From the NCBI GenBank assembly GCA_021779915.1, contig JAJXZR010000002.1, forward strand, positions 1-48,628: 48,628 nt of DNA, read 5' to 3'. Below, piece after piece: positions 286-33,203 of the stretch (positions are counted from its first letter, which is position 1; each line of letters opens with the position of its first letter). The translations under genes were made by a program, and so were the position numbers. Source of the DNA: a bacterium. Its GTDB lineage: Bacteria; Patescibacteriota; Minisyncoccia; CAIUEV01. A model generated the notes under the pieces. That model saw only the letters and a program-made list of their open reading frames with translations, was not told where the DNA came from and did not search any database.

Positions 286-312
286 AAAAAAGCGCTCTCG
301 GAGCGCTTTTTG
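286..312 (+). terminator. Intrinsic terminator after tRNA-Ser
   Basis: agcgctctcggagcgct hairpin followed by a T-run. Confidence 0.8.
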
Positions 313-438
313 TGTCTTCTAACATCTTTTCTTGGGCAGAAAAGTATTTGCGGTTGATGAGATACATAGGTAACATAAAAGTTTGATTATTAGAATATAG
401 GTGCTATATTTGCACAAATTAAGCATTCATCAATATCC

Positions 439-1548
439 ATGAGTCTCGGTCCGTACAAAATTAACGGAAGCCGGATTTCTTATATCGGCAATAAAATTTA
501 TGAACCTATTGAGGAAGTCAGAAAAATCAAACCTCCACAACATCTGACCAGTCGCCATCTTCAAGTAAGAAATGAAAATAAAAAATGGGAAGCTCTGATA
601 AAAATTTGGGACGGGGTTTTTAAAGCAAGTAATGCTTTTATGGAAAGTAAAGACGTTTTATTATTTGACCTTCCTATCACCACAAGGATGATATCGTCTC
701 CTGGCGCTCTAACCGGTACTATATCTTCTGATGTCGACCCTTTTGAGATAAAATTTTTTGACAAAAAAACTTTTCTAACTCAATCATCCCAGCTTTATTT
801 AGAGTTTGCCATTACTAATCCCGGTATCAATAGCGTTTATTGTTGGGAAAAAAGTTTTCGAAGGGAGAGGGCCGATTTTAGGCACCTGCCCGAATTCACC
901 CACATTGAGTTTGAAGCTAACATAGGATTTGAAAAAAATTTGGAGCTTCAGCAAAAATATCTTCAATTCCTTGTTGGATATTTAATCGAGAAAAATTTAA
1001 AAGAACTCAAGGTATTCCTAAAACAGACCGATTTAGAAAAATTAGGAAAATTTACTAAGATAAAAAAGTTCAAGAGAATTGAATTTAACGAGGCCTTTAA
1101 GTTGCTTGAGAAAAAAATGAAGAGGACTGTTTACAAAAACCCTACTATTAGAAATTTCGGAGTTTATGAGGAAGTTGCTCTAGGCGAAATTATAGACGAG
1201 CCGTGTTTTGTAACTCACTACATCGAGGAAGAAGTTGCTTTTTATCATGCTAAAGATCCGAGAAAACAAGGATTGGTGATAAATGCTGACTTCCTACTTA
1301 CCGGTTACGGAGAATTAATTGGAAGTGGCGAGAGAGTGCACACAAAAGAAGAAACAAGTGAAAAAGCTTTGCACTTCAAGCTCAATATGGAAGATTATCA
1401 ACCCTACATTGATTCAAGAGATAGTAATCCCCAAATACATTCAGGCTGGGGGATGGGGATTGAAAGATTTATCCAATGTATCTTAAAACTGCCTTTTATC
1501 TGGGAAGCTAAGGCATTTCCCAGGGTAGATAACCAAAATCATCCTTAG
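439..1548 (+). CDS. Class IIb aminoacyl-tRNA synthetase-like protein (AsnRS/archaeal AS-AR-like) without the N-terminal OB-fold anticodon-binding domain
   Basis: LTQSSQLYLEFA, motif 2 FRRERADFRHLPEFTHIEFE, motif 3 GWGMGIERF; ORF too short and lacks an OB-fold before the catalytic core. Confidence 0.85.
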   Translation: MSLGPYKINGSRISYIGNKIYEPIEEVRKIKPPQHLTSRHLQVRNENKKWEALIKIWDGVFKASNAFMESKDVLLFDLPITTRMISSPGALTGTISSDVDPFEIKFFDKKTFLTQSSQLYLEFAITNPGINSVYCWEKSFRRERADFRHLPEFTHIEFEANIGFEKNLELQQKYLQFLVGYLIEKNLKELKVFLKQTDLEKLGKFTKIKKFKRIEFNEAFKLLEKKMKRTVYKNPTIRNFGVYEEVALGEIIDEPCFVTHYIEEEVAFYHAKDPRKQGLVINADFLLTGYGELIGSGERVHTKEETSEKALHFKLNMEDYQPYIDSRDSNPQIHSGWGMGIERFIQCILKLPFIWEAKAFPRVDNQNHP

Positions 1549-1551
1549 ACA

Positions 1552-2586
1552 ATGATAAAAACGATAAAACCAGGAAAACTTTCAAAAGGCGACAGAATCG
1601 GTATTGTAAGTCCTTCCTCCCCCATGGCTGGGCTAGTGCCTCACCGTGTCAAAAAGGGCGTTGCCATGATCAAAAAACTTGGGCTTCGACCTGTAGTTGG
1701 AAAGAATGCTTTAAAAATTACCGAATACACAGCAGGGAATCCTAAAGAACGGGCGGAGGACATAAACAATTTTTTTAAAGACGAGAACATTAAAGCTATC
1801 ATATCTTTTGTTGGTGGCAATCACTCAAACCAGATACTCAAATATTTGAATTTTAATCTGATCAAGAAAAATCCAAAAATATTTGTCGGCTATTCGGATA
1901 TAACGGTATTACATTTAGCTATTCACACAAAAGCTAATTTAACTACTTTTTATGGACCGGCAGTTATAACCCAATTTGCCGAGAATCCAGAAATTCTGGG
2001 CTATACTCGGAAGTATTTTGAAAAGGCGCTAATGGGGAAAGAAGTAATCGGTAATATTAAACCATCTCCAAGTTGGACTGAAGAAACCCTAGACTGGTTT
2101 GAGAAAGAAGATTTAAAAAGACCAAGGAAGATGAAAAAAAATCCCGGCTGGGAGTGGCTCGGGAAGGGCAAGACAAGAGGGAAAATCTTGGGTGGTTGTA
2201 TTACTTCCATGATGCATCTCCGAGGAACAGAGTATTGGCCCGATTTCAAAAACGCTATATTTTTTTGGGAGATTCCAGAAGGGGAGGATTTTACAAGGGG
2301 AGAAAAATTGGAGAACATAGACGCTTACCTCACGGATTTGGAATTATCAGGGGTATTTGGATTAATAAAAGGAATGGTGATCGGCAGACCTTTTAGCTAT
2401 AGCAAAGAGCAGAATGAGAAGCTAATGAACATTATTGCGGAAAGAACTAGCAATTATAGATTCCCCATTCTATACAGTGTCGATGTAGGCCACACCGACC
2501 CCATGATAACTATTCCTCTGGGAACGACCGTGGAATTAGATTCTGATAGTAACCGATTTACGTTTCTCGAAAAAGGAACAAGTTAA
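1552..2586 (+). CDS. S66 family serine peptidase (LD-carboxypeptidase / MccF microcin C self-immunity-like)
   Basis: GDRIGIVSPSSP N-terminus, nucleophile elbow VGYSDITVLH, GHTDPMITIPLG near the C-terminus; starts 3 nt after the upstream stop. Confidence 0.88.
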   Translation: MIKTIKPGKLSKGDRIGIVSPSSPMAGLVPHRVKKGVAMIKKLGLRPVVGKNALKITEYTAGNPKERAEDINNFFKDENIKAIISFVGGNHSNQILKYLNFNLIKKNPKIFVGYSDITVLHLAIHTKANLTTFYGPAVITQFAENPEILGYTRKYFEKALMGKEVIGNIKPSPSWTEETLDWFEKEDLKRPRKMKKNPGWEWLGKGKTRGKILGGCITSMMHLRGTEYWPDFKNAIFFWEIPEGEDFTRGEKLENIDAYLTDLELSGVFGLIKGMVIGRPFSYSKEQNEKLMNIIAERTSNYRFPILYSVDVGHTDPMITIPLGTTVELDSDSNRFTFLEKGTS

Positions 2587-2612
2587 AATAATCATCCAGA
2601 ATAAGTACAATT

Positions 2613-3419
2613 ATGAGTAAAATAGCCTCTTCAGACGTTAGAAATTTTTCCTACGTGGAACTAATGGCTTTCCTAAACGAAACGAATCGCCCTCCCGGAG
2701 GAAAGGATTCAATCAGAAGAATAGTCCAAAATTGTTTTATCACCAAGGATTCAAAAGTCTTGGATGTGGGATGCAACACTGGATACTGTTCTTTTGAGAT
2801 TGCCCATCTGGCAAAATGTTCTGTTACAGGAGTTGACATTAATAAAGACATGATTGGGACGGCTAAAAAGAATCAGTCTAAAGATGCCTCGAAAAGTTTG
2901 TTGAAATTTATTCTGGCAGACGGAATGAAACTGCCCTTTGAAAAAGAAGCTTTTGATGTCGTAATGTCGGGTGGATCTACCGCCTTTATTGAAGATAAAA
3001 TGAAAGCAATACATGAATATAAAAGAGTATTAAAGCAATGGGGTTTTATAGCCGATATAAACTTTTTTTATAAGACAAAGCCTCCAAAAAAACTGATTGA
3101 AAAGCTTAATACAACTATGGGTATTAATATTGAGCCATGGAGCATAGATTACTGGCTGAACCTTTATAAAAGATGTGGTCTTGAAAGATACTATGTTTAT
3201 AAGGGGAAAATAAAGAAGGTAATAAATAAAGAGGTACAAAATTATTGTTCCATAATGGTTGGGCAAAAAGGGCTTGATAAAACTTCAGGAAAAGAATTGT
3301 GCGGGAGATTAGGGGACATTATGAATTTATTCAATCGAAATCATAATTATTTAGACTACGGGGTTTTTATTTTGAGAAAAAGGTCGAAAGAAGAACAAAT
3401 CTCACTATTTGGGGCATAA
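2613..3419 (+). CDS. Class I SAM-dependent methyltransferase (Methyltransf_11-like)
   Basis: Motif I VLDVGCNTGYCSFEIA, VTGVDIN, DGMKLPFEKEAFDVVMS. Confidence 0.85.
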   Translation: MSKIASSDVRNFSYVELMAFLNETNRPPGGKDSIRRIVQNCFITKDSKVLDVGCNTGYCSFEIAHLAKCSVTGVDINKDMIGTAKKNQSKDASKSLLKFILADGMKLPFEKEAFDVVMSGGSTAFIEDKMKAIHEYKRVLKQWGFIADINFFYKTKPPKKLIEKLNTTMGINIEPWSIDYWLNLYKRCGLERYYVYKGKIKKVINKEVQNYCSIMVGQKGLDKTSGKELCGRLGDIMNLFNRNHNYLDYGVFILRKRSKEEQISLFGA

Positions 3420-3427
3420 ACATAAAA

Positions 3428-3460
3428 GGGGAGTTTTCTGATTTTACAAAAGACTCCCCA
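3428..3460. terminator. Probable bidirectional terminator between convergent operons
   Basis: ggggagttttctgattttacaaaagactcccc inverted repeat. Confidence 0.6.
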
Positions 3461-3465
3461 TCCTG

Positions 3466-4767
3466 TTACTTTTTTCTGCTACGCTTCCTTTGCTCTTCCA
3501 AGAAAAACCGGTAGCCCTCCTCGTCTATCTTTATCTTCTGTTCTTTTGCGATTTCCTTGAGCAGATCAAGAGGCAAACCATGAGTATCGTGAAGTTTGAA
3601 AGCGTCCTCTCCGGAGATGAACTCTTTCGAGTGCAGAACAACTTTTTCGAACTCTTTCAATCCTCTTTTCAGGGTTTTCCCAAAGGTATCTCCCTCCTTT
3701 TTTATTGCCACCTCGATGACCCTTTGGTTTTGGGTAAGTTGTGGATAATATTGTGAAAACATCTTGACCACAAGACTGCTAGCCCTGGCAAGATTTTGTG
3801 GCTGGACGCCGGACAAGTCAGCGTGTAAAAAAGCCCTCCTGAGGAGCCTTCTCAACACATATTCCCTGCTAGTGTTACCTGTGTAAATTCCATCGGCGAT
3901 CATGAAAGTTGCACACCGTATGTGATCTGTCATCACCCGAATCGATTTCTCAGAAATGTTGTTTGCGCGTTCACCAGCAATAACATCCTTTATCGGCTTC
4001 AAGAGGTCAGTTTCATATACGGAGTCGACTTCCTGGAGAATAACGGAAAAACGATCCAAACCGGCTCCGGCATCAACGCTCTTTATTGGAAGCTCGCTAA
4101 AGTCGCCACTTTCGTGGAGATTGTATTGCATGAATACTCCGGCGTTCCATATTTCCAAAAAGCGCCCACACTCACAATCCGGACCACAATCCTTACCGCC
4201 ACATCCGAGCTCTTCTCCTCGATCGATGAACACTTCTGTGCATGGACCACACGGTCCAGTTTCGCCTGCCGGACCCCAGAAGTTGGAATTAGCTCCTAAA
4301 CGAATTATTCTTTCCGGGGGAAGCAAACTATTCCAAATCCGGATCGACTCTTCATCCGGTGGAATATTAGGCAACCTGTTGTCTCCACTGTAAACGGTCG
4401 CATAAATCCGGTGAGTGTCGAAGCCAAAAACATCCTTGATCGCACCCCAAGCTAGCGTGATAGCTTCGTCTTTGAAATAATCTCCGATTGACCAGTTGCC
4501 CATCATCTCAAAAAATGTTAGATGGTGTCTGTCTCCGATACTCTCGATGTCATTCGTTCGGACGCACTTCTGAATGTTGCAAAGACGTTGTTCGGGAGGG
4601 GTCTTCTCCCCAGTAAAGTAGGGTTTTAGCGGTGCCATACCAGAATTTACGATAAGAAGTGTCGGATCCTCGTTGGGGATAAGAGAGGAACTGCTTATCA
4701 CCAAATGCTCATGGCCGGCGAAATAATCCAGGAAAATCCTCCTTATTTCTGAGCTTGAAATTTTCAT
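3466..4767 (-). CDS. Alanyl-tRNA synthetase-like protein with catalytic and tRNA-recognition domains only (no editing or C-Ala domain)
   Basis: KCVRTNDIESIGDRHHLTFFEMMGNWSIGDYF, NFWGPAGETGPCGPCTEVF, AGAGLDRF, ends ..DTHGLPLDLLKEIAKE..FLEEQRKRSRKK; start at 4767 preceded by AAGGAGA. Confidence 0.9.
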   Translation of the reverse strand: MKISSSEIRRIFLDYFAGHEHLVISSSSLIPNEDPTLLIVNSGMAPLKPYFTGEKTPPEQRLCNIQKCVRTNDIESIGDRHHLTFFEMMGNWSIGDYFKDEAITLAWGAIKDVFGFDTHRIYATVYSGDNRLPNIPPDEESIRIWNSLLPPERIIRLGANSNFWGPAGETGPCGPCTEVFIDRGEELGCGGKDCGPDCECGRFLEIWNAGVFMQYNLHESGDFSELPIKSVDAGAGLDRFSVILQEVDSVYETDLLKPIKDVIAGERANNISEKSIRVMTDHIRCATFMIADGIYTGNTSREYVLRRLLRRAFLHADLSGVQPQNLARASSLVVKMFSQYYPQLTQNQRVIEVAIKKEGDTFGKTLKRGLKEFEKVVLHSKEFISGEDAFKLHDTHGLPLDLLKEIAKEQKIKIDEEGYRFFLEEQRKRSRKK

Positions 4768-4769
4768 GT

Positions 4770-5936
4770 CTAATCTCCTTTTTCTGAAAGTATCATCAGC
4801 TTGAGTGATATTCCGTAAGTGTCCCAAAGATATTCTGGGGGAAATGTCTTATTCTTAAGAGTAGTGACTGCTCTCCGCATTATTTCGCGAAGAGCATATG
4901 CTTCTCTGTTGACTAAGTCTTTTATCGCTGTTTCTCTGGTAATCGTTCCGTCGCGTAACATTTGTTGGCCGAAGTCGTTAATTAGCCCATCCACTCGGAT
5001 AGTTTTTTGGACAGCTATCCAGGTAATTTCCAAAAAACGCCTTATCAATTTTCTCATCACGTACCCCTCTCGCTTGTTTGAAGGGCTGACCCCTTCTTCA
5101 GCTAAGATGAGAATTGCTCTGAGATGGTCGGATATTATCCTTACATCTTCTATATTGGAAAAGCCGATAAAGTTGCCGACAATATTTGTTAGAGGCTTAA
5201 GGGTATCAATTTCATATCCATTGCATCCCTGGATTGCCGCAGCAAGACGTTCTACTCCGACACCGAGATCGAATCCCGGATTGGCTATAGGCACGATTCC
5301 ATCATACCCCGTTTCTTGTCCGTATAAATAGATGAGATTGAGCAGTTCAATAAATCTGTCCTGTCCATCAATCATCTGCTGAATCGAGGTAACCTTGCCA
5401 TGTGAATGCGAGTAAATAACGGTAACCCCCTTTCCTACTGCTCCGAGTTTTCCGAATCTCCATTCTTGCCAGAAATGATCGTTTTTTTTCAAAGAGAAAA
5501 TTCTTGAAGAATCTACTCTGTTTGCCAAAAGAACTTCACCGAATTCACCAGTTGGAACCGTGAAGAAGGTTCTTTCTGCTTCCAAATCAAGAATCTCCAA
5601 AAGATCCAATAGATATCGAACGGCGACAGAATAGTTTGACGTAAAAATCCCGCTTCCGAACATCTCAAAAAATGTAAAATAGTACGGATTTCTTCCGACA
5701 AACTCGATCTCGTCTTTTCTTCCCATCCTGAAACACTTCTGGATAAAAGCGTAGTTTTCCGGCTTCGATTCCACATCAGTGAACCATCTTTTGAATGGGG
5801 TAATTGTTGCGTTCGTAAACATCACCGTAGGATCACCCGACATTAGAGGAAAAGACTTAAAAATTTTAAATCCTTTTTCCTGATGGTACCTTATGAGGAT
5901 CCTCTTAATTTCATCAACAGACAACACTCTGCTCAT
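4770..5936 (-). CDS. Divergent AlaRS-like paralog with remodelled active-site motifs
   Basis: KCFRMGRKDEIEFVGRNPYYFTFFEMFGSG and FDLGVGVERLAAAIQ retained, GPxGPCGPCxE motif absent (KLGAVGKGVTVIY); AAAGGTGG upstream of ATG at 5936. Confidence 0.82.
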   Translation of the reverse strand: MSRVLSVDEIKRILIRYHQEKGFKIFKSFPLMSGDPTVMFTNATITPFKRWFTDVESKPENYAFIQKCFRMGRKDEIEFVGRNPYYFTFFEMFGSGIFTSNYSVAVRYLLDLLEILDLEAERTFFTVPTGEFGEVLLANRVDSSRIFSLKKNDHFWQEWRFGKLGAVGKGVTVIYSHSHGKVTSIQQMIDGQDRFIELLNLIYLYGQETGYDGIVPIANPGFDLGVGVERLAAAIQGCNGYEIDTLKPLTNIVGNFIGFSNIEDVRIISDHLRAILILAEEGVSPSNKREGYVMRKLIRRFLEITWIAVQKTIRVDGLINDFGQQMLRDGTITRETAIKDLVNREAYALREIMRRAVTTLKNKTFPPEYLWDTYGISLKLMILSEKGD

Positions 5937-6351
5937 TTCTCTTACCACCTTTCTTGTTAATGTACTTTAACATTGAACTCTAGCAGAGTTCTTTGGTTTT
6001 TCAAATGCCCTAAGCGAAAAAGGAGACATTCTGCTGTCCCAATAAGACATATGCTGTCTCGTGTCTCATTTTTGCCAAAAACTCCGACCCAATCTCCTTA
6101 AATTCTAGTTCTCGACCAAATCCTAGAAACGTTCTATGATACTCATATATTCTGGGTACTTAACTCGAGATGCCCGCCTTCAGAGATAGCGCGCGAATGA
6201 CATCAGTGCAACAAGTGTTTGATTATGTATATCTTAGCCGGAGCTTTAAAAGAGTATAATTACAATTATGCCTAATTTTATTTTTTACCTTGCGAAAGTA
6301 AATGTGAAATGAATAACCACTAAATTCTTGATTTTTATTTTATCTCGGCTA

Positions 6352-8561: not shown

Positions 8562-9395
8562 ATGAAAACAACCAAAATTGCCTTGTTTCGAGGCAGGAAA
8601 ATTAGGAAAACGCTTTATCAAAATGAATGGTGGTTTGTAATAAATGATGTTGTTGAAGCATTAACTGACTCAATTGATCCCGCTCAATACTTTAAGCGAA
8701 TGAAAAAAAGAGATCAGGAATTAGCAAAATTGATAAACAAAGGGGGTGTACAATTTGTACCACCCCTTATGTTAGAAATAGAAACGACTGGTGGTCGGCA
8801 AAAAATGTATTGTTGGAATACTGAAGGAATATTTAGACTTATTCAATCCATCCCCTCTCCTAAAGCCGAGCCATTTAAGCGATGGTTGGCAAGAGTTGGG
8901 TATGAAAGATTACAAGAAATAGAAAACCCCGAACTGGCAACTAAGAAAACGAGGCTCCTTTATAAATTAAAGGGGTACCCGGAGGATTGGATTGAGAAAC
9001 GAATAAGGGGCATTGCGATTCGCGAAGAATTGACAGATGAATGGCAAAAGCGAGGAGCTGATGAAGATAGAGATTATGAAATTTTAACAGCAGAAATCTC
9101 CAAAGCGACTTTTGGAATTACACCAAGTGAATACAAAGACTTAAAAGGGCTTAAAAGACAAAATTTGCGTGATCATATGGATGATTTTGAACTGATTTTT
9201 ACCATGCTCGGAGAGAGATCAACTACTGAAATTCATCGTGTGGAAAATTCCAAAGGAGTGAAAAAGCTAAAAGATGATGCCAAAGCTGGTGGAGAGATTG
9301 CCGGTGGAGCCAGAAAGAACTTGGAAAAACGATTAGGTAAATCCATTGTTTCTGGCAACAATTTCTTACCAAAACCCAAACAAAAAGGATTTTGA
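8562..9395 (+). CDS. BRO family / DinD-like protein with N-terminal Bro-N domain
   Basis: FRGRKIRKTLYQNEWWFVINDVVEALT; YCWNTEGIFRLIQSIPSPKAEPFKRWLARVGYERLQEIENPE. Confidence 0.85.
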   Translation: MKTTKIALFRGRKIRKTLYQNEWWFVINDVVEALTDSIDPAQYFKRMKKRDQELAKLINKGGVQFVPPLMLEIETTGGRQKMYCWNTEGIFRLIQSIPSPKAEPFKRWLARVGYERLQEIENPELATKKTRLLYKLKGYPEDWIEKRIRGIAIREELTDEWQKRGADEDRDYEILTAEISKATFGITPSEYKDLKGLKRQNLRDHMDDFELIFTMLGERSTTEIHRVENSKGVKKLKDDAKAGGEIAGGARKNLEKRLGKSIVSGNNFLPKPKQKGF

Positions 9396-10127: not shown

Positions 10128-10910
10128 ATGAAAAAACCATATTACAACAAATCAAAGTTTAAATTGTATCACTCAGATTGTTTAGATATTTTGAAGGAAA
10201 TTCCCGAAAATTCCGTGGATATGATTTTTGCCGATCCTCCCTACTTGCTTTCAAATGGGGGTTTTACTTGTGATGGTGGAAAAATGGTCAGTGTAAATAA
10301 AGGTCAGTGGGATGTTAGTAATGGCCTAAAAAAGGATTTTGAGTTTCATTTGGAATGGACCAAGGCTTGTCATAGAGTTTTGAAGCCCGGAGGGACTATA
10401 TGGGTTAGTGGAACTTACCATTCAATCTATAAGTGCGGTTTTGCCTTGCAAGTCAACAAATACCACATTCTGAACGATATTGCTTGGTTTAAGCCAAATG
10501 CATCACCGAATTTAAGTTGTCGTTTCTTCACGGCTAGTCACGAGACTATAATTTGGGCTAGAAAGGACAAAAAGGGGAAGCATAAATTCAACTATGATTT
10601 AATGAAAAACGGCAATTGGCCGGAAGACTTTTTAAAAAAGCCAAATTTACAAATGCGAAGTATTTGGTCAATGAACACGCCAAAACCATCCGAAAAGAAA
10701 TTCGGCAAGCACCCTACTCAAAAACCAATAGATCTGTTGGTGCGCATTGTTATGGCTAGCACTGATAAAGGCGATTTAGTCATTGATCCTTTTACGGGTT
10801 CTTCAACAACCGGATTAGCTTGCGTTCTTAATGATCGAAAATTTATTGGTATTGATATGGAAAAGAAATATTTAGATCTGTCGATTAAGAGATATGAGGA
10901 TTTAACATAA
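10128..10910 (+). CDS. Type II DNA methyltransferase (DPPY, N6-A or N4-C; D12/N6_N4_Mtase type)
   Basis: DMIFADPPYLLSNGG followed by DPFTGSSTTGLACVLNDRKFIGID. Confidence 0.92.
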   Translation: MKKPYYNKSKFKLYHSDCLDILKEIPENSVDMIFADPPYLLSNGGFTCDGGKMVSVNKGQWDVSNGLKKDFEFHLEWTKACHRVLKPGGTIWVSGTYHSIYKCGFALQVNKYHILNDIAWFKPNASPNLSCRFFTASHETIIWARKDKKGKHKFNYDLMKNGNWPEDFLKKPNLQMRSIWSMNTPKPSEKKFGKHPTQKPIDLLVRIVMASTDKGDLVIDPFTGSSTTGLACVLNDRKFIGIDMEKKYLDLSIKRYEDLT

Positions 10911-10914
10911 CAAC

Positions 10915-11610
10915 ATGCTTTCAAGTTTAAAATTAAAGGTTTTAAAACCATTTATTGACATCATAGAAACTCACAAAGGGAAAACTTTGGGGGAGGTTTC
11001 AAGAAAACTTAGTAATGGTAGGCACAAGCATTTCAAAAAAGGAGCCAGTGGTCTAATTATTGAAAATTTATTAGGGCTTGAAAATAATAATTCTAAAAAG
11101 GCGGATTTAGAGGAATACAGAATTGAAATCAAAGTTCTGCCGATCCAACTGAGTAACTTGAAAGCGAAAGAGCCGACACAAATAAAAATGATAAATTATG
11201 TCAGAGTGGCTTCTGAAAAATGGGAAAATGCTGAAATTAGGGATAAAATTGAAACAATTTTTTGGATTGCCTATGGTGTTAAAAAAGAAAACGGAAAAAA
11301 CGTTAGTCAAGACAAATATATTATTTTGGATTGGTTCATTGATGTACCTAATAATGAAACTCAAAAAATATTTCGAAAAGATTGGGAAGAAGTAAAATCC
11401 TATATAACAGCAGGAAGAGCCGATAAGTTATCCTGTAGCATGGGTGTTTATATTGAGCCAAAAACAAAAGGGAAAAATAATCAAGATCTAACTGATGCAC
11501 CTGATGGTAAAGGCGGTTTAGTTAAGGTTAGAAGAAGAGCTTTCTATTTCAAAAAAAATTATACCAATTTCAAAGTAATAAAAGAACTTGACTTAAAGGG
11601 GGTGAAATAG
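10915..11610 (+). CDS. MutH/Sau3AI-type restriction endonuclease
   Basis: KKGASGLIIENLLGL...ADLEEYRIEIKVLPI resembles the Sau3AI/MutH E..D..ExK catalytic pattern; adjacent to the methyltransferase. Confidence 0.75.
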   Translation: MLSSLKLKVLKPFIDIIETHKGKTLGEVSRKLSNGRHKHFKKGASGLIIENLLGLENNNSKKADLEEYRIEIKVLPIQLSNLKAKEPTQIKMINYVRVASEKWENAEIRDKIETIFWIAYGVKKENGKNVSQDKYIILDWFIDVPNNETQKIFRKDWEEVKSYITAGRADKLSCSMGVYIEPKTKGKNNQDLTDAPDGKGGLVKVRRRAFYFKKNYTNFKVIKELDLKGVK

Positions 11611-13778: not shown

Positions 13779-14615
13779 TTATCTCTTTTTCTTCTTCCTG
13801 CGTCGTACAATATACTGGCTGGAGGGTTTTTTGGGTTTTCGGGTTTTTACTCCCTTGGCGGGTTTACCCCATTTGGTCTTTTGATATTTAAGACCAATCG
13901 GTTGGTTTCCTTCTCCTCCTCCATGTGGATGGTCGACGGGGTTCATAACCTTACCTCTGACTTGTGGACGTCTTCCCATCCATCTTTTACGTCCGGCTTT
14001 TCCGATTCGGATAGTATTATGTTCAATGTTAGCGGCCTTTCCGATGGTAGCAAAACAAACGTCGTGAATCATTCTGATTTCAGAGGAAGGCATCTGGAGA
14101 TGAGTAAAGCCATTTTCCTGCGCCATAACGACGGCAGATGATCCGGCTGATCTTACGATTTGACCACCTTTGTTCACTTTCAATTCAATATTAAAAACTT
14201 CGGTTCCCACAGGAATTCTTTTAAGAATGGTGCGGTTTCCTATTTTAATTTCTGCTTTGGGAGAAATCATGATAATGTCTCCTTCTTTAGCTCCGTGCCA
14301 AGCGGGAATATAACTCTTCTCTCCATCAGCATAGGCGATAAGAGCGATAAAGGTGGTACGATTAGGATCTTTTTCTACTCCGATAACCTTAGCTGGGATT
14401 TCTTTTTTATTAAGACGAAAATCAACAATGCGGAGCATCCTTTTGTGGCCTCCTCCTCTGTGACGGGTAGAAATCTTACCGGTGCTCATTCGTCCGACTT
14501 TGCTGGTTTTGGGAAGAAGTAACGACTTCTCAGGCTTTCTTTTCTTATCAAAACCGTCCTTCACATAGGACATGACTCTCTTTCCAGTATTTTTAATCTT
14601 TCTAATCTTAAGCAT
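13779..14615 (-). CDS. rplB: Ribosomal protein L2
   Basis: STRHRGGGHKRMLRIVDF; NPVDHPHGGGEG. Confidence 0.98.
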   Translation of the reverse strand: MLKIRKIKNTGKRVMSYVKDGFDKKRKPEKSLLLPKTSKVGRMSTGKISTRHRGGGHKRMLRIVDFRLNKKEIPAKVIGVEKDPNRTTFIALIAYADGEKSYIPAWHGAKEGDIIMISPKAEIKIGNRTILKRIPVGTEVFNIELKVNKGGQIVRSAGSSAVVMAQENGFTHLQMPSSEIRMIHDVCFATIGKAANIEHNTIRIGKAGRKRWMGRRPQVRGKVMNPVDHPHGGGEGNQPIGLKYQKTKWGKPAKGVKTRKPKKPSSQYIVRRRKKKKR

Positions 14616-14641
14616 AATAGATAATAAAAAGCGATTCTTAA

Positions 14642-14935
14642 TTACATTTTCTTAATACTTTCACCTTTTTTCAAAGTCACAATGGCCTTTTTTCCTCTTT
14701 TCCCCTTCTTTCCTTCACCCGATCTTCTCATCACAACTTTAGTTTTGATCTGAACGATATTAATCTTTTCGACCTTTACACCATATATTTTCTCTATAGC
14801 TTTTCTGACCATTACTTTATTAGCCTTGCTTTTCACTCGGAAAGTGTATTTTCCTGTCTTTTCTCCAGCGACAATCTTTTCAGTCATAAGAGGAGAAACA
14901 ATAATATCTTCCAGTATGTTATTTTGCTTGTTCAT
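14642..14935 (-). CDS. rplW: Ribosomal protein L23
   Basis: ILEDIIVSPLMTEKI..KYTFRVKSKANKVMVRKAIEKIYGVKV. Confidence 0.96.
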   Translation of the reverse strand: MNKQNNILEDIIVSPLMTEKIVAGEKTGKYTFRVKSKANKVMVRKAIEKIYGVKVEKINIVQIKTKVVMRRSGEGKKGKRGKKAIVTLKKGESIKKM

Positions 14936-15623
14936 CGGGTTGGATTACTGAATCATTTTTCCGAGATCTCGTTACCTTTTTGGAAGAACTCTCGGCTTTA
15001 AATTTTTCTTCCAAGATTTTAACCGCTCCTTTTTCTATCAAAACAATCTTTTTACTAAGTAAATCAAGAGTGTTGGTGTTGTTAATATCGGTTGTTTTCA
15101 CCTTTTCAAGATTAAGGGAGGCTCTCTTTAAGTTGGCATTTTGCTTTTCGGTTACCACTAAAACTGATTTCTTCCCATCAGACAAACCAGTGAGAATATT
15201 CGATAATCCTTTGGTTTTGGCATTATCTAGATCAAAACTATCAACAAACCTTATCTCTTTATCTCGAAGTTTTGCGCTAAGAGCCATTAAGAAAGCCAGT
15301 CGTCCAACTTTTTTGTTGATCTTACTGAGATAGTTTCGTTCATTGCGGGGTCCAAAAGTAATTCCTCCACCTTTCCAAATCGGACTTCTGTTTGACCCGG
15401 CGCGGGCCCTTCCTGTCCCTTTTTGCTTCCAAGGTTTCTTACCTCCACCCCTCACTTCCCCTTTGTTTTTGGTATGGGCAGTGTAAACTCGCTGGTTATT
15501 AAGGAGAGAAACCGTTACTTGATGCATTAAATCGGAATTCAACTTAACGTCAAAAATATGTTCGGCAAGTTCGATGGTTCCCGTTTCTTTTCCTTCCAAA
15601 TTGTATACTGAAATCTTTGTCAT
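14919..15623 (-). CDS. rplD: Ribosomal protein L4
   Basis: THTKNKGEVRGGGKKPWKQKGTGRARAGSNRSPIWKGGG-type motif. Confidence 0.97.
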   Translation of the reverse strand: MTKISVYNLEGKETGTIELAEHIFDVKLNSDLMHQVTVSLLNNQRVYTAHTKNKGEVRGGGKKPWKQKGTGRARAGSNRSPIWKGGGITFGPRNERNYLSKINKKVGRLAFLMALSAKLRDKEIRFVDSFDLDNAKTKGLSNILTGLSDGKKSVLVVTEKQNANLKRASLNLEKVKTTDINNTNTLDLLSKKIVLIEKGAVKILEEKFKAESSSKKVTRSRKNDSVIQPDEQAK

Positions 15624-15643
15624 GATAATTTATGAAAATTATT

Positions 15644-16261
15644 TTACATTCCAACCACTTTCACCCAGCTTCCTTTCCTACCGGGGACTGCTCCTTTGAT
15701 CGCGATAATATTCTTTTCTTTATCGATCCAAGCAATTTTGGAATTTTTAATAGTGACCTGTTCATATCCCATGCTACCGGCCATCTTCTTTCCTTTTTGT
15801 ACGTGTTCCGGAAAAGCAGATCCGATTGAACCGGCACTTCGAAGGACATGCCTGTGTCCATGGCTTTTGGGACCACCTTTAAATCCGTGTCGCCTGACAA
15901 CTCCTTGAGTCCCTTTACCTTTAGTTATGGCGATAACTTTAACATTGTCACCATTTTTGAAATTGTCAGCATTAATATTCTCTCCTTCTTTACCTTCCAT
16001 CTTCTCTTCCTCGGAGAGTCTGAACTCCTTGATAACGAGGAAATTTGTACTTTTCTTGACTAAATCGCTCTTAGATTCAATTGTTTGGGATTTTTTCTTA
16101 AGAATACCTAAGATATAAGATGAATAGCCATCTTTCTGTTGGGTTTTCTCTCCGACAAACACAGTCCGTCCGAAATCAACTAAGGTGATCGGCTCTACTT
16201 CCTTTTTTTCATTCCACCATTCTGTCATTCCCAATTTTTCTCCAAGTAAAAAAGTATTCAT
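15644..16261 (-). CDS. rplC: Ribosomal protein L3
   Basis: GKGTQGVVRRHGFKGGPKSHGHRHVLRSAGSIG. Confidence 0.97.
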   Translation of the reverse strand: MNTFLLGEKLGMTEWWNEKKEVEPITLVDFGRTVFVGEKTQQKDGYSSYILGILKKKSQTIESKSDLVKKSTNFLVIKEFRLSEEEKMEGKEGENINADNFKNGDNVKVIAITKGKGTQGVVRRHGFKGGPKSHGHRHVLRSAGSIGSAFPEHVQKGKKMAGSMGYEQVTIKNSKIAWIDKEKNIIAIKGAVPGRKGSWVKVVGM

Positions 16262-31266: not shown

Positions 31267-31380
31267 AATGTAAAATGTAAAAATCAAAATAGAAAATTTA
31301 GGAGTGAGCCTCGCTCACATTTAACTGCTTGTCGCTTATAGCGACACCAAAATTTTGCATTTTGCATTTTAAATTTTTAA
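31267..31380. repeat. Cruciform-like intergenic repeat (family B)
   Basis: Outer aatgtaaaatgtaaaaatcaaaat / attttgcattttgcatttt with gtgagcctcgctcac and gtcgcttatagcgac hairpins. Confidence 0.75.
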
Positions 31381-33203
31381 TTATTTCTGTTCCACTCTCT
31401 TCTTAATTTAAACTCGTACGGATAATGCTTTGTATGGAGAAGCTTTTCGGCTTTTCGGCTTTTCGGCTTGTATAGAAAATCATTGTAAAGCGCTATAATT
31501 GCTGGATTTTTGTGAGATTCTCTGAGAGGCTGGACTAAATCGCTATGGAGAAGCGATCCTGACCTTGACCTTCTAATAGAATCATTCACCGGATACGGTT
31601 GACCTCCTCCACCTATGCATCCTCCTGGGCAGGCCATTACCTCGATAAAATCATATTTTGATTTACCGGAAAGTACTTCCTCAACAATCTTTCTGGCGTT
31701 TCTTAAACCAAAAACAACGGCAATATTTAAATTTATTTTTCCAATCTTGAGTTTTGCCTCCTTAATTCCTTTGAGTCCCCTTAGCTCCTCAATCTCAAGT
31801 TTAGGAAGGCTTTTTCCTGTTAAGTAATAATAAGCGCTACGTGATGCAGCTTCTGCTACTCCTCCGCTAGTTCCAAAAATAGTTGCCGCACCTGTCCCCA
31901 TTCCTAAGGGAGGATCAAAATCTTTATCTGGCAAATCAAGGAAAGGGATTTGCAGATTTTTAATTAGATGGGCTAATTCTCTTGTTGTTAAAACAAAATC
32001 CACATCTTTAATGGAGCCGGTTGAAAATTCCGGTCTTGAGGCCTCGTATTTTTTGGCAGTGCAGGGCATAATTGAAACTAAACTAATATTTTTTGGATCG
32101 ACTTTAATTTTGGAAGCATAGTAAGTTTTTACGAGAGATCCAAGCATCATTTGGGGAGATCGAGTGGTAGAAAGATGAGGGATTAATTCAGGATAGAACT
32201 CTTCTACAAAAAGAACCCAAGCTGGACAACAACTAGTGAAAAGAGGCAAGGGGTTTTTGTGGTTTTTTTCTTTTATTCTTTCAATCAGCTCCGTGGCTTC
32301 TTCCGTTATAGTCAGATCAGCACTGGTGTTTACGTCAAAAACTTTTTCAAAGCCACATTCATAAAGAGCGGAAACTATTTTACCTGTGACTACTGATCCG
32401 GGAAGCATACCAAATTCTTCTCCTAATGTGGCTCTAACAGAGGGCGCAACCTGTGCAATAAGAATTTTATCAGGATCTTTCAGTAGCTTGATAACGGGTC
32501 CCAAATCACTTTTCTCTATGATAGCTCCGGTCGGACAATGGAGAGCACATTGTCCGCAATAGGTGCATTCGAGTGGAGCATAATTTTCTGTGCCCACTCC
32601 CATATGAATGCCCCTTTTTTGAGTGTTGAGAGCTTTAACACCCTGAATTTTGTCGCAGGTTTTAATACATCGTCGGCATTCAATACATTTTGCACTATCA
32701 CGGGCAATAGAGGGATTTTTTGTGTCGACGACCCTTCTTTCAAGTTGGTTTCTCAACTGTTCTAATGCCTCTTCACTGTCTGTTGATACTGCCTTTGGAA
32801 CGAAACGGAATTGATCAATAGAATAATGAATAGCAAGTTTTTGTAGTTCGCAGTTGAGATTTCGATAGCAGTGTGAGCAAAGACCGGCATGCTCAACAAA
32901 AAGCAACTCCAAAAGAGTTTTTCTTATGCGTGAAAGATCGTGATCATTAGATATGATCTCCAAACCGTCCTGAGTTTTAATTGCGCAACTAGGAAGGTAG
33001 TGATAATCCTCCTCTTGGGACTTTTTAACTTTAACTAGACACAATCGGCAGACTGCGTCGCTTTTTTCAAAGTCTTCATGATTGCAAAGAGAAGGGATTT
33101 CCAAGTTATTCTTTCTACAAAAATCAATCAATTTCTCTCCACTTGTACAATCAAAAATTTTCTCGTTGATTCGAATTTTAATTTTTTTCCCGACACTATC
33201 CAT
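31377..33203 (-). CDS. Monomeric [FeFe]-hydrogenase large subunit (group A) with N-terminal 2Fe-2S and 4Fe-4S domains
   Basis: H-cluster motifs TSCCPAWV, MPCTAKKYE, EVMACPGGCIGGGGQP; CIECRRCIKTCDKIQG; CTYCGQCALHCPTGAI. Confidence 0.96.
   Translation of the reverse strand: MDSVGKKIKIRINEKIFDCTSGEKLIDFCRKNNLEIPSLCNHEDFEKSDAVCRLCLVKVKKSQEEDYHYLPSCAIKTQDGLEIISNDHDLSRIRKTLLELLFVEHAGLCSHCYRNLNCELQKLAIHYSIDQFRFVPKAVSTDSEEALEQLRNQLERRVVDTKNPSIARDSAKCIECRRCIKTCDKIQGVKALNTQKRGIHMGVGTENYAPLECTYCGQCALHCPTGAIIEKSDLGPVIKLLKDPDKILIAQVAPSVRATLGEEFGMLPGSVVTGKIVSALYECGFEKVFDVNTSADLTITEEATELIERIKEKNHKNPLPLFTSCCPAWVLFVEEFYPELIPHLSTTRSPQMMLGSLVKTYYASKIKVDPKNISLVSIMPCTAKKYEASRPEFSTGSIKDVDFVLTTRELAHLIKNLQIPFLDLPDKDFDPPLGMGTGAATIFGTSGGVAEAASRSAYYYLTGKSLPKLEIEELRGLKGIKEAKLKIGKINLNIAVVFGLRNARKIVEEVLSGKSKYDFIEVMACPGGCIGGGGQPYPVNDSIRRSRSGSLLHSDLVQPLRESHKNPAIIALYNDFLYKPKSRKAEKLLHTKHYPYEFKLRREWNRNN

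What the first reader, a model, noticed from the sequence alone, without database searches (positions are those of the whole stretch)
439..3419. Operon of an anticodon-domain-less AsnRS-like enzyme, an MccF-like S66 peptidase and a SAM methyltransferase
ORF1 has class IIb synthetase motifs but no OB-fold, resembling archaeal AS-AR-type asparagine synthetase-related proteins, which activate aspartate as an adenylate. ORF2, 3 nt downstream, is an S66 peptidase of the MccF/LD-carboxypeptidase family; MccF enzymes destroy aminoacyl-adenylate antibiotics such as microcin C, an aspartyl-adenylate mimic. ORF3 is a small-molecule-type methyltransferase. The shared chemical theme would be aspartyl/asparaginyl adenylates: a candidate pathway that makes, modifies or detoxifies an aminoacyl-nucleotide. 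The function is inference.
Basis: partly seen in the sequence, partly recalled or inferred. Interest (0 to 1): 0.82.

Follow-up and report, generated by a model that had tools for sequence, protein, structure and literature searches.

The report
Agrocin-like antibiotic cassette in ultrasmall bacterium
A tiny, probably host-dependent bacterium carries a compact gene set that matches the core of the agrocin 84 and microcin C antibiotic pathways, with a spare alanyl-tRNA synthetase in place of agrocin's spare leucyl enzyme, which suggests (untested) that it makes a decoy nucleotide that blocks alanine charging in other cells.

Summary
The three genes are real and form a conserved set, but the set is larger than reported: five genes, 439-5948. 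ORF1 is an AsnRS catalytic core without OB-fold. It falls in one clade (support 100/99) with AgnA, the truncated AsnRS of the agrocin 84 plasmid. ORF2 is MccF-like, with triad and substrate-loop Trp kept. ORF3 belongs to the AgnB1/MccD family (best solved relative: microcin C MccD). The same five functions sit together on plasmids of Exiguobacterium and Peribacillus. pAgK84, a Xenorhabdus megaplasmid and a Moraniibacteriota relative carry LeuRS instead; a Bacillus pseudomycoides plasmid carries GluRS. Related cassettes, scattered across Patescibacteria and one Micrarchaeon, use a HisRS-like protein instead of the AlaRS-related one. Best reading: a minimal agrocin-84/microcin-C-type pathway for an N-acyl-phosphoramidate nucleotide inhibitor of an aminoacyl-tRNA synthetase, here probably AlaRS, with MccF-like and target-copy self-immunity. 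Homology, gene content and co-localisation are shown; product, target and export are inferred. No exporter is visible, the contig ends 438 nt upstream of ORF1, and the extra AlaRS is short. Known kind, new variant; I found no report of such clusters in Patescibacteria.

The parts
287..311 (+). Intrinsic-terminator-like hairpin upstream of ORF1; probable left border of the cassette
   Evidence: 11 bp stem AAAAAGCGCTC-TCG-GAGCGCTTTTT. Terminator-like matches in the region are only as frequent as in shuffles (7 vs 6.1), but this is the longest stem listed.
383..410 (+). Promoter-like site before ORF1 (weak)
   Evidence: TTGATT-16-TATATT with TG before the second hexamer, 9 of 12 matches; consensus match only.
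439..1548 (+). ORF1, AgnA-like: truncated AsnRS (catalytic core only, 369 aa)
   Evidence: PF00152 3e-40; AgnA 31% over 275 aa, 115 bits; one clade with AgnA and plasmid homologues, 100/99; AF2 model pLDDT 83, pTM 0.88, nearest folds AsnRS 9sh8 and 1x54, TMq 0.79-0.80.
1552..2586 (+). ORF2, MccF-like S66 peptidase (344 aa); predicted self-immunity enzyme
   Evidence: PF02016/PF17676; PDB: B. anthracis MccF-like Ba3275 3e-70, MccF 6e-53; pAgK84 S66 35.5%, E 1e-63; triad Ser115/Glu/His314 and Trp182, equal to MccF S118/E243/H311/W186, kept.
2613..3419 (+). ORF3, AgnB1/MccD-like SAM-dependent enzyme (268 aa)
   Evidence: Best solved relative MccD 5fcd, 4e-27; tblastn in plasmids: Exiguobacterium 4e-50, Peribacillus 7e-45, AgnB1 of pAgK84 2e-40, MccD of MccC7-H22 2e-24; motif ETNRPPGGK.
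3428..3459 (.). Hairpin between the convergent ORF3 and AlaRS copy; probable two-way terminator
   Evidence: GGGGAGTTTTC...AAAAGACTCCCC; folds at -17.3 and -18.9 kcal/mol on the two strands, z = -3.7 for each.
3466..4767 (-). Extra AlaRS copy without editing domain (433 aa from ATG 4767; 453 aa if TTG 4827 is used); predicted immune target copy
   Evidence: PF01411 2e-136, profile 1-430 of 552; GPCGPCTE and motif 3 kept; long branch, apart from the housekeeping AlaRS on C18.
4770..5948 (-). AlaRS-related protein (392 aa), counterpart of the 'alanine--tRNA ligase-related protein' of the Exiguobacterium and Peribacillus clusters
   Evidence: PF01411 4e-47, residues 13-309; shares G[KR]Gx[TA] in place of the AlaRS GPxGPxTE motif with the other cluster AlaRS-related proteins; five rows on one side of a branch, 99/97, long branches.

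Best explanation
The five genes at 439-5948 are a compact biosynthesis-and-immunity cassette of the agrocin 84 / microcin C kind, in a Patescibacterium (relatives: Moraniibacteriota). SHOWN: ORF1 is an AgnA-type truncated AsnRS, ORF3 an AgnB1/MccD-type SAM enzyme, ORF2 an MccF-type S66 peptidase with its catalytic and nucleobase-loop residues, and next to them lie an AlaRS-related protein and a second, editing-less AlaRS. The same functions are clustered on plasmids of unrelated bacteria. INFERRED, step by step: (1) ORF1 uses ATP and Asn (or a like amide) to make an N-acyl-phosphoramidate (P-N bonded) nucleotide, doing the job that ThiF-like MccB does in microcin C. (2) ORF3 alkylates or otherwise modifies that nucleotide with a SAM-derived group, as MccD does for the aminopropyl decoration. 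(3) The AlaRS-related protein, which has lost the normal AlaRS pocket motif, adds or exchanges the aminoacyl part (alanine or an analogue). (4) The product mimics an aminoacyl-adenylate and blocks a synthetase in competitor cells or the host. (5) ORF2 cuts the carboxamide bond of stray product, and the extra AlaRS is a product-insensitive stand-in, as the LeuRS AgnB2 is in K84. The identity of the extra synthetase (LeuRS, AlaRS or GluRS in different clusters) would then name the target: here AlaRS.
For: ORF1 in the AgnA clade (100/99); agnA is described as a truncated AsnRS lacking the anticodon domain and acting in antibiotic synthesis, and agnB2 as the self-immunity LeuRS (PMC4392301, PMC5059758). 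ORF3: MccD is the best solved relative, AgnB1 and plasmid homologues the best plasmid hits; mccD/mccE are required for aminopropyl installation, MccF cuts the carboxamide bond (PMC9239234). ORF2 keeps the MccF residues. Same gene set in annotated plasmids: Exiguobacterium (AlaRS-related, MTase, AsnA-like, AlaRS, MFS, S66), Peribacillus (AlaRS, AlaRS-related, MTase, AsnA-like, S66, MFS), Xenorhabdus (AsnA-like, MTase, S66, LeuRS, aaRS-related, MFS), pAgK84 (AsnA-like, MTase, LeuRS, S66), B. pseudomycoides (AsnA-like, MTase, GluRS, HisRS-like, S66, MFS). In Patescibacteria: L144 (S51 peptidase in place of S66; S51 MccG is a known immunity enzyme, PMC9239234) and L145. G002 has a second LeuRS beside its cassette, also missing the editing segment.
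Against: No product is known and nothing is expressed. No exporter, nucleoside-tailoring or precursor-peptide gene is visible in the window; the genome shows one MFS transporter, on another contig, and the contig ends 438 nt upstream of ORF1. The AlaRS copy lacks about a quarter of PF01411 plus the editing domain and sits on a long branch, so it could be decaying. In the AlaRS tree it does not group with the Exiguobacterium/Peribacillus copies. The AlaRS-related proteins are very divergent and their join may be long-branch attraction. Agrocin 84 itself has no aminopropyl group, so what AgnB1-type enzymes do is open. The exact AgnA reaction was not found in a readable paper.
Confidence: 0.72

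Rival explanations
1. Resistance island only: the genes detoxify nucleotide antibiotics made by neighbours or the host (MccF-like peptidase plus spare AlaRS), and ORF1/ORF3 inactivate or modify the drug rather than make one.
For: Stand-alone S66 and S51 immunity genes are common (PMC9239234); no exporter or tailoring genes in view; the genome is small.
Against: AgnA- and AgnB1-type enzymes are biosynthetic in agrocin 84, and the same core recurs in clusters that carry transporters and tailoring genes. A pure resistance set has no need of ORF1 and the AlaRS-related protein.
Confidence: 0.13
2. One reading: ORF1 is an asparagine synthetase or other amino-acid enzyme, ORF2 recycles muropeptides, ORF3 is an unrelated methyltransferase; the neighbourhood is accidental.
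For: NCBIfam gives weak 'asparagine synthetase A' scores (134.9 bits, cut-off 389), and RefSeq names AgnA relatives that way.
Against: AsnRS models and folds score higher than AS-AR; the set recurs together in several phyla; ORF2 is MccF-like with its loop Trp; ORF3 is MccD-like.
Confidence: 0.05
3. A tRNA-level function: ORF1, the AlaRS-related protein and the AlaRS copy charge or modify tRNA (as GluQ-RS does), and S66 is incidental.
For: All three are class II synthetase cores with ATP-binding motifs largely kept; no ordinary AsnRS turned up in the PF00152 search of the genome.
Against: Does not explain S66/S51 and MccD-like partners, nor the swap of LeuRS/AlaRS/GluRS between clusters. G000 has a non-discriminating-AspRS-like gene on C20 for Asn-tRNA (assignment inferred).
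Confidence: 0.06

Closest known systems
Agrocin 84 cluster (agn genes, plasmid pAgK84, Agrobacterium radiobacter K84)
   Same: AgnA-type truncated AsnRS next to AgnB1-type SAM enzyme; S66 peptidase in the same plasmid cluster; an extra synthetase as self-immunity (AgnB2).
   Different: AlaRS copy instead of LeuRS; an AlaRS-related protein added; no nucleoside or sugar tailoring, dioxygenase, radical SAM or PEP-utilising genes in view; far fewer genes.
Microcin C (mcc operon)
   Same: MccD-like SAM enzyme and MccF-like S66 peptidase.
   Different: No MccB (no ThiF gene found in the genome), no MccE hit, no peptide precursor seen; P-N bond chemistry presumably by an AsnRS-like enzyme.
AlaRS-copy clusters on plasmids of Exiguobacterium sp. 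Helios (NZ_CP053558) and Peribacillus psychrosaccharolyticus (NZ_CP068052)
   Same: All five functions: AgnA-like, AgnB1-like, S66, AlaRS-related, extra AlaRS.
   Different: Those carry full 595-aa AlaRS copies, MFS exporters, ATP-grasp and (Exiguobacterium) sugar genes; products unknown to me; ORF1 belongs to a different AgnA subclade.
Archaeal AS-AR asparagine synthetase (PDB 1nnh, 3p8t)
   Same: AsnRS/AspRS catalytic core without anticodon domain.
   Different: Clearly weaker sequence match than AsnRS; not among the top 50 folds; AS-AR is not known for partnering MccF/MccD-like genes (own knowledge).

Membership tests
Agrocin 84-type nucleotide antibiotic cluster | Truncated AsnRS of the AgnA clade | tested here: met
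   Tree 100/99; 31% identity, 115 bits to AgnA
Agrocin 84-type nucleotide antibiotic cluster | AgnB1-type SAM enzyme in the same cassette | tested here: met
   tblastn E 2e-40 to AgnB1, 33% over 99%
Agrocin 84-type nucleotide antibiotic cluster | Extra synthetase copy as self-immunity | tested here: inconclusive
   Extra AlaRS (not LeuRS) present; insensitivity untested; copy is short
Agrocin 84-type nucleotide antibiotic cluster | S66 peptidase in the cluster | tested here: met
   35.5%, E 1e-63 to the pAgK84 S66
Agrocin 84-type nucleotide antibiotic cluster | Nucleoside/glucosyl-phosphate tailoring and export genes | tested here: not met
   blastp of 18 proteins of the pAgK84 agn region gave window hits only for AgnA, AgnB1 and S66; the contig end limits this
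Agrocin 84-type nucleotide antibiotic cluster | P-N bonded adenine nucleotide product | not testable with these tools
   needs biochemistry or mass spectrometry
Microcin C cluster | MccB (ThiF) and MccA precursor | tested here: not met
   No ThiF in the genome, 96% complete; MccA not searched
Microcin C cluster | MccD-like enzyme | tested here: met
   5fcd 4e-27
MccF family (S66) | Ser-Glu-His triad and substrate-loop Trp | tested here: met
   S118/E243/H311/W186 counterparts aligned
MccF family (S66) | Cleavage of aminoacyl-nucleotide carboxamide | not testable with these tools
   -
AS-AR asparagine synthetase | Closest relatives are AS-AR rather than AsnRS | tested here: not met
   AsnRS scores higher in NCBIfam, PDB sequence and fold searches; AS-AR absent from the tree
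Functional AsnRS | OB-fold anticodon-binding domain | tested here: not met
   Hit covers the catalytic domain only; residues 1-34 are too short for an OB-fold

The most novel reading that the evidence does not exclude
Patescibacteria make AlaRS-directed Trojan-horse nucleotides with a stripped-down, horizontally spread agrocin-like cassette; across bacteria and at least one DPANN archaeon such cassettes are modular (AgnA core plus AlaRS-related/AgnB1-type or HisRS-like/other SAM-enzyme modules), and the spare synthetase in each names its target.
Probability: 0.45. Interest if true: 0.85.

Novelty: new variant of a known kind. Interest (0 to 1): 0.76.

Why it matters
Agrocin 84 is usually treated as a single plasmid oddity. 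These data place its AgnA-type enzyme in a broad family of clusters found in several bacterial phyla and one Micrarchaeon, with different spare synthetases that give testable target predictions (LeuRS, AlaRS, GluRS). A chemical weapon in ultrasmall, host-dependent Patescibacteria would bear on how they handle competitors or hosts; the survey of their gene clusters that I read found few, mostly RiPP-like (PMC12153355). The set is small enough (three to five genes) to rebuild in a laboratory strain.

Tried and rejected
Viral contigs hold no ORF1 relative. PADLOC gives no defence-system match beyond a generic methyltransferase. The idea that the cassette needs the HisRS-like gene was dropped: the window genome lacks it, and the AlaRS-related gene stands in the corresponding role. 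An early reading, that the AlaRS-related protein is private to this genome because its best class hits are ordinary AlaRS at about 32%, was dropped after L144, L145 and the plasmids showed counterparts. OB-less AsnRS-like proteins of G118 and G015 (L041, L027) looked like relatives but fall outside the AgnA clade. A try to bring archaeal AS-AR into the tree failed. Paper searches for the AgnA reaction, phosmidosine genes and Patescibacteria nucleotide antibiotics gave no mechanism paper; the 2006 agrocin sequence paper is not held.

Full report
OBSERVATION. The three ORFs exist at the given coordinates. ORF1 is a class IIb synthetase core (PF00152, residues 35-363, 3e-40) with no anticodon domain; ORF2 is a full S66 peptidase; ORF3 is a class I SAM-dependent enzyme. 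Immediately downstream, on the opposite strand, lie two more synthetase-type genes: an AlaRS-related protein (4770-5948, 392 aa) and an AlaRS without editing domain (3466-4767, 433 aa from the first ATG). A 32-nt hairpin at 3428-3459 separates the convergent units and is far more stable than shuffles on both strands. A terminator-like hairpin at 287-311 lies upstream of ORF1. The window is one whole contig (C46) of a 1.12 Mb, 48-contig, 96% complete genome. Its relative G002 (same family) holds the same contig region as a record titled Candidatus Moraniibacteriota (L040 = L076), a Patescibacteria lineage.

WHAT EACH GENE IS. ORF1: AsnRS is the nearest solved relative by sequence (5zg8, 1.5e-38; AS-AR 1nnh 3e-12 and 3p8t 1.5e-10) and by fold (AF2 model, pLDDT 83, pTM 0.88; TMq 0.79-0.80 to AsnRS). 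Class II motifs 2 and 3 are intact. In a maximum-likelihood tree, ORF1, AgnA of pAgK84 and sixteen other cluster proteins form one group with 100/99 support against E. coli AsnRS, Patescibacteria AsnRS/AspRS-type genes, LysRS and two OB-less AsnRS-like proteins. ORF2: best solved relatives are MccF-type enzymes; MccF S118, E243, H311 and W186 all have counterparts. ORF3: best solved relative is MccD of microcin C (5fcd, 4e-27); among 72,556 plasmids the best hits are the SAM enzymes that sit beside AgnA-like genes in Exiguobacterium (4e-50), Peribacillus (7e-45), pAgK84 (AgnB1, 2e-40) and Xenorhabdus (5e-38), with MccD of a microcin C plasmid at 2e-24. The AlaRS-related protein shares with its cluster counterparts a G[KR]Gx[TA] motif where AlaRS has GPxGPxTE, and the five of them lie on one side of a branch (99/97), though the branches are long. 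The AlaRS copy keeps the AlaRS motifs but ends at PF01411 position 430 of 552. The genome's housekeeping AlaRS is the one on C18, which pairs with that of G002 (100/100).

THE SET IS CONSERVED. A search of 388 genomes of the class with the ORF3 family gave three strong hits: the window, G164 and G293. Both other loci carry an AgnA-like gene and an AlaRS-related gene beside it, with an S66 peptidase (G293, L145) or an S51 peptidase (G164, L144). S51 MccG enzymes are known self-immunity peptidases of microcin C-type clusters (PMC9239234). A sister type has a HisRS-like protein and other SAM enzymes with the AgnA-like gene and S66: G002, G130, G180, G280, G294 and a Micrarchaeon (L075, which also has an ORF3-type gene). 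A 15-sequence model of the HisRS-like protein resembles HisZ/HisRS (TMq about 0.5-0.6). It also occurs without these partners in Nostoc, KSB1, Acidobacteria and others.

ANNOTATED COUNTERPARTS. pAgK84, the agrocin 84 plasmid, has AgnA, AgnB1 and the LeuRS AgnB2 side by side and an S66 gene nearby. A review states that agnA is a truncated AsnRS lacking the anticodon domain that serves antibiotic synthesis, and that agnB2 is a LeuRS giving self-immunity (PMC4392301; PMC5059758). Exiguobacterium sp. Helios and Peribacillus psychrosaccharolyticus plasmids carry all five window functions plus MFS transporters, with AlaRS as the extra synthetase. Xenorhabdus bovienii carries LeuRS and Bacillus pseudomycoides GluRS. 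G002 has a second LeuRS beside its cassette that lacks the profile positions 225-407 (the editing insert), while seven other cassette genomes or relatives show no such second copy. So the extra synthetase varies between clusters of one kind, as a target-replacement gene would.

MECHANISM (inferred). In microcin C a ThiF enzyme makes an N-acyl-phosphoramidate nucleotide, MccD/MccE add an aminopropyl group to its phosphate, and MccF cuts the carboxamide bond for immunity (PMC9239234). Agrocin 84 has the same N-acyl phosphoramidate logic at its 5' end (own knowledge) but carries AgnA. No ThiF gene was found in the window genome. The simplest reading is that ORF1 makes the P-N bonded nucleotide, ORF3 modifies it, the AlaRS-related protein supplies or swaps the aminoacyl part, and ORF2 and the AlaRS copy protect the producer. 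Only the gene identities and the co-localisation are shown; every chemical step is inference.

WEAK POINTS. The contig end is 438 nt upstream of ORF1, so exporter or tailoring genes may be missing; only one MFS gene was found in the genome, on another contig. The AlaRS copy is short and fast-evolving, so decay cannot be excluded, although E. coli AlaRS fragments of about this length are active (own knowledge). It does not group with the plasmid AlaRS copies. The GC of the AlaRS pair (0.42-0.45) differs from ORF1-3 (0.37-0.39), which hints at a separate origin. Archaeal AS-AR is absent from the tree. The genome is a fragmented assembly.

VERDICT. The finding becomes an agrocin-84/microcin-C-type cassette with an AlaRS twist: a new variant of a known kind, of high interest because of its host lineage and because the spare synthetase gives a direct, testable target prediction.

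Noticed in passing
window 8562-9395, 10128-10910, 10915-11610: Bro-N domain protein, an N6/N4 DNA methylase and a MutH/MvaI-type nuclease directly after it (a likely restriction-modification pair): an island-like stretch between the cassette and the ribosomal protein operon.
   Followed up: partly
window 31377-33203: Large [FeFe]-hydrogenase-type protein (Fe_hyd_lg_C 3e-95, Fe_hyd_SSU, NADH-G and ferredoxin domains) in a Patescibacterium.
   Followed up: no
G000:C33 (L049) 13870-15687: A third AlaRS, full length with editing part, on a long branch and weakly joined (86/85) to the Exiguobacterium/Peribacillus cluster copies; could be a second immune copy or foreign sequence in the bin.
   Followed up: partly
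L040 8751-10670 (G002): Second LeuRS beside an AgnA-like cassette lacks the editing insert; the window's AlaRS copy also lacks its editing domain, so loss of editing may be common in these copies.
   Followed up: partly
L078-L125 (e.g. L108 7893-8843, Nostoc): HisRS-like family of about 320-390 aa that occurs without the cassette in Nostoc, KSB1, Acidobacteria and others; function unknown.
   Followed up: partly
L144 5929-7059 (G164): Radical SAM protein with a lysine-2,3-aminomutase-like look between the AgnA-like and AlaRS-related genes; suggests a beta-amino acid in that product.
   Followed up: no
L071 9235-9828 and just downstream (G173): HisRS-like gene interrupted by a stop, with no cassette genes near: a possible decaying remnant.
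   Followed up: no
L075 3021-5346 (Micrarchaeota): PEP-utilising/PEP-synthase-like pieces upstream of the cassette; one matches the pAgK84 PEP-utilising enzyme at 40% over 92 aa.
   Followed up: no
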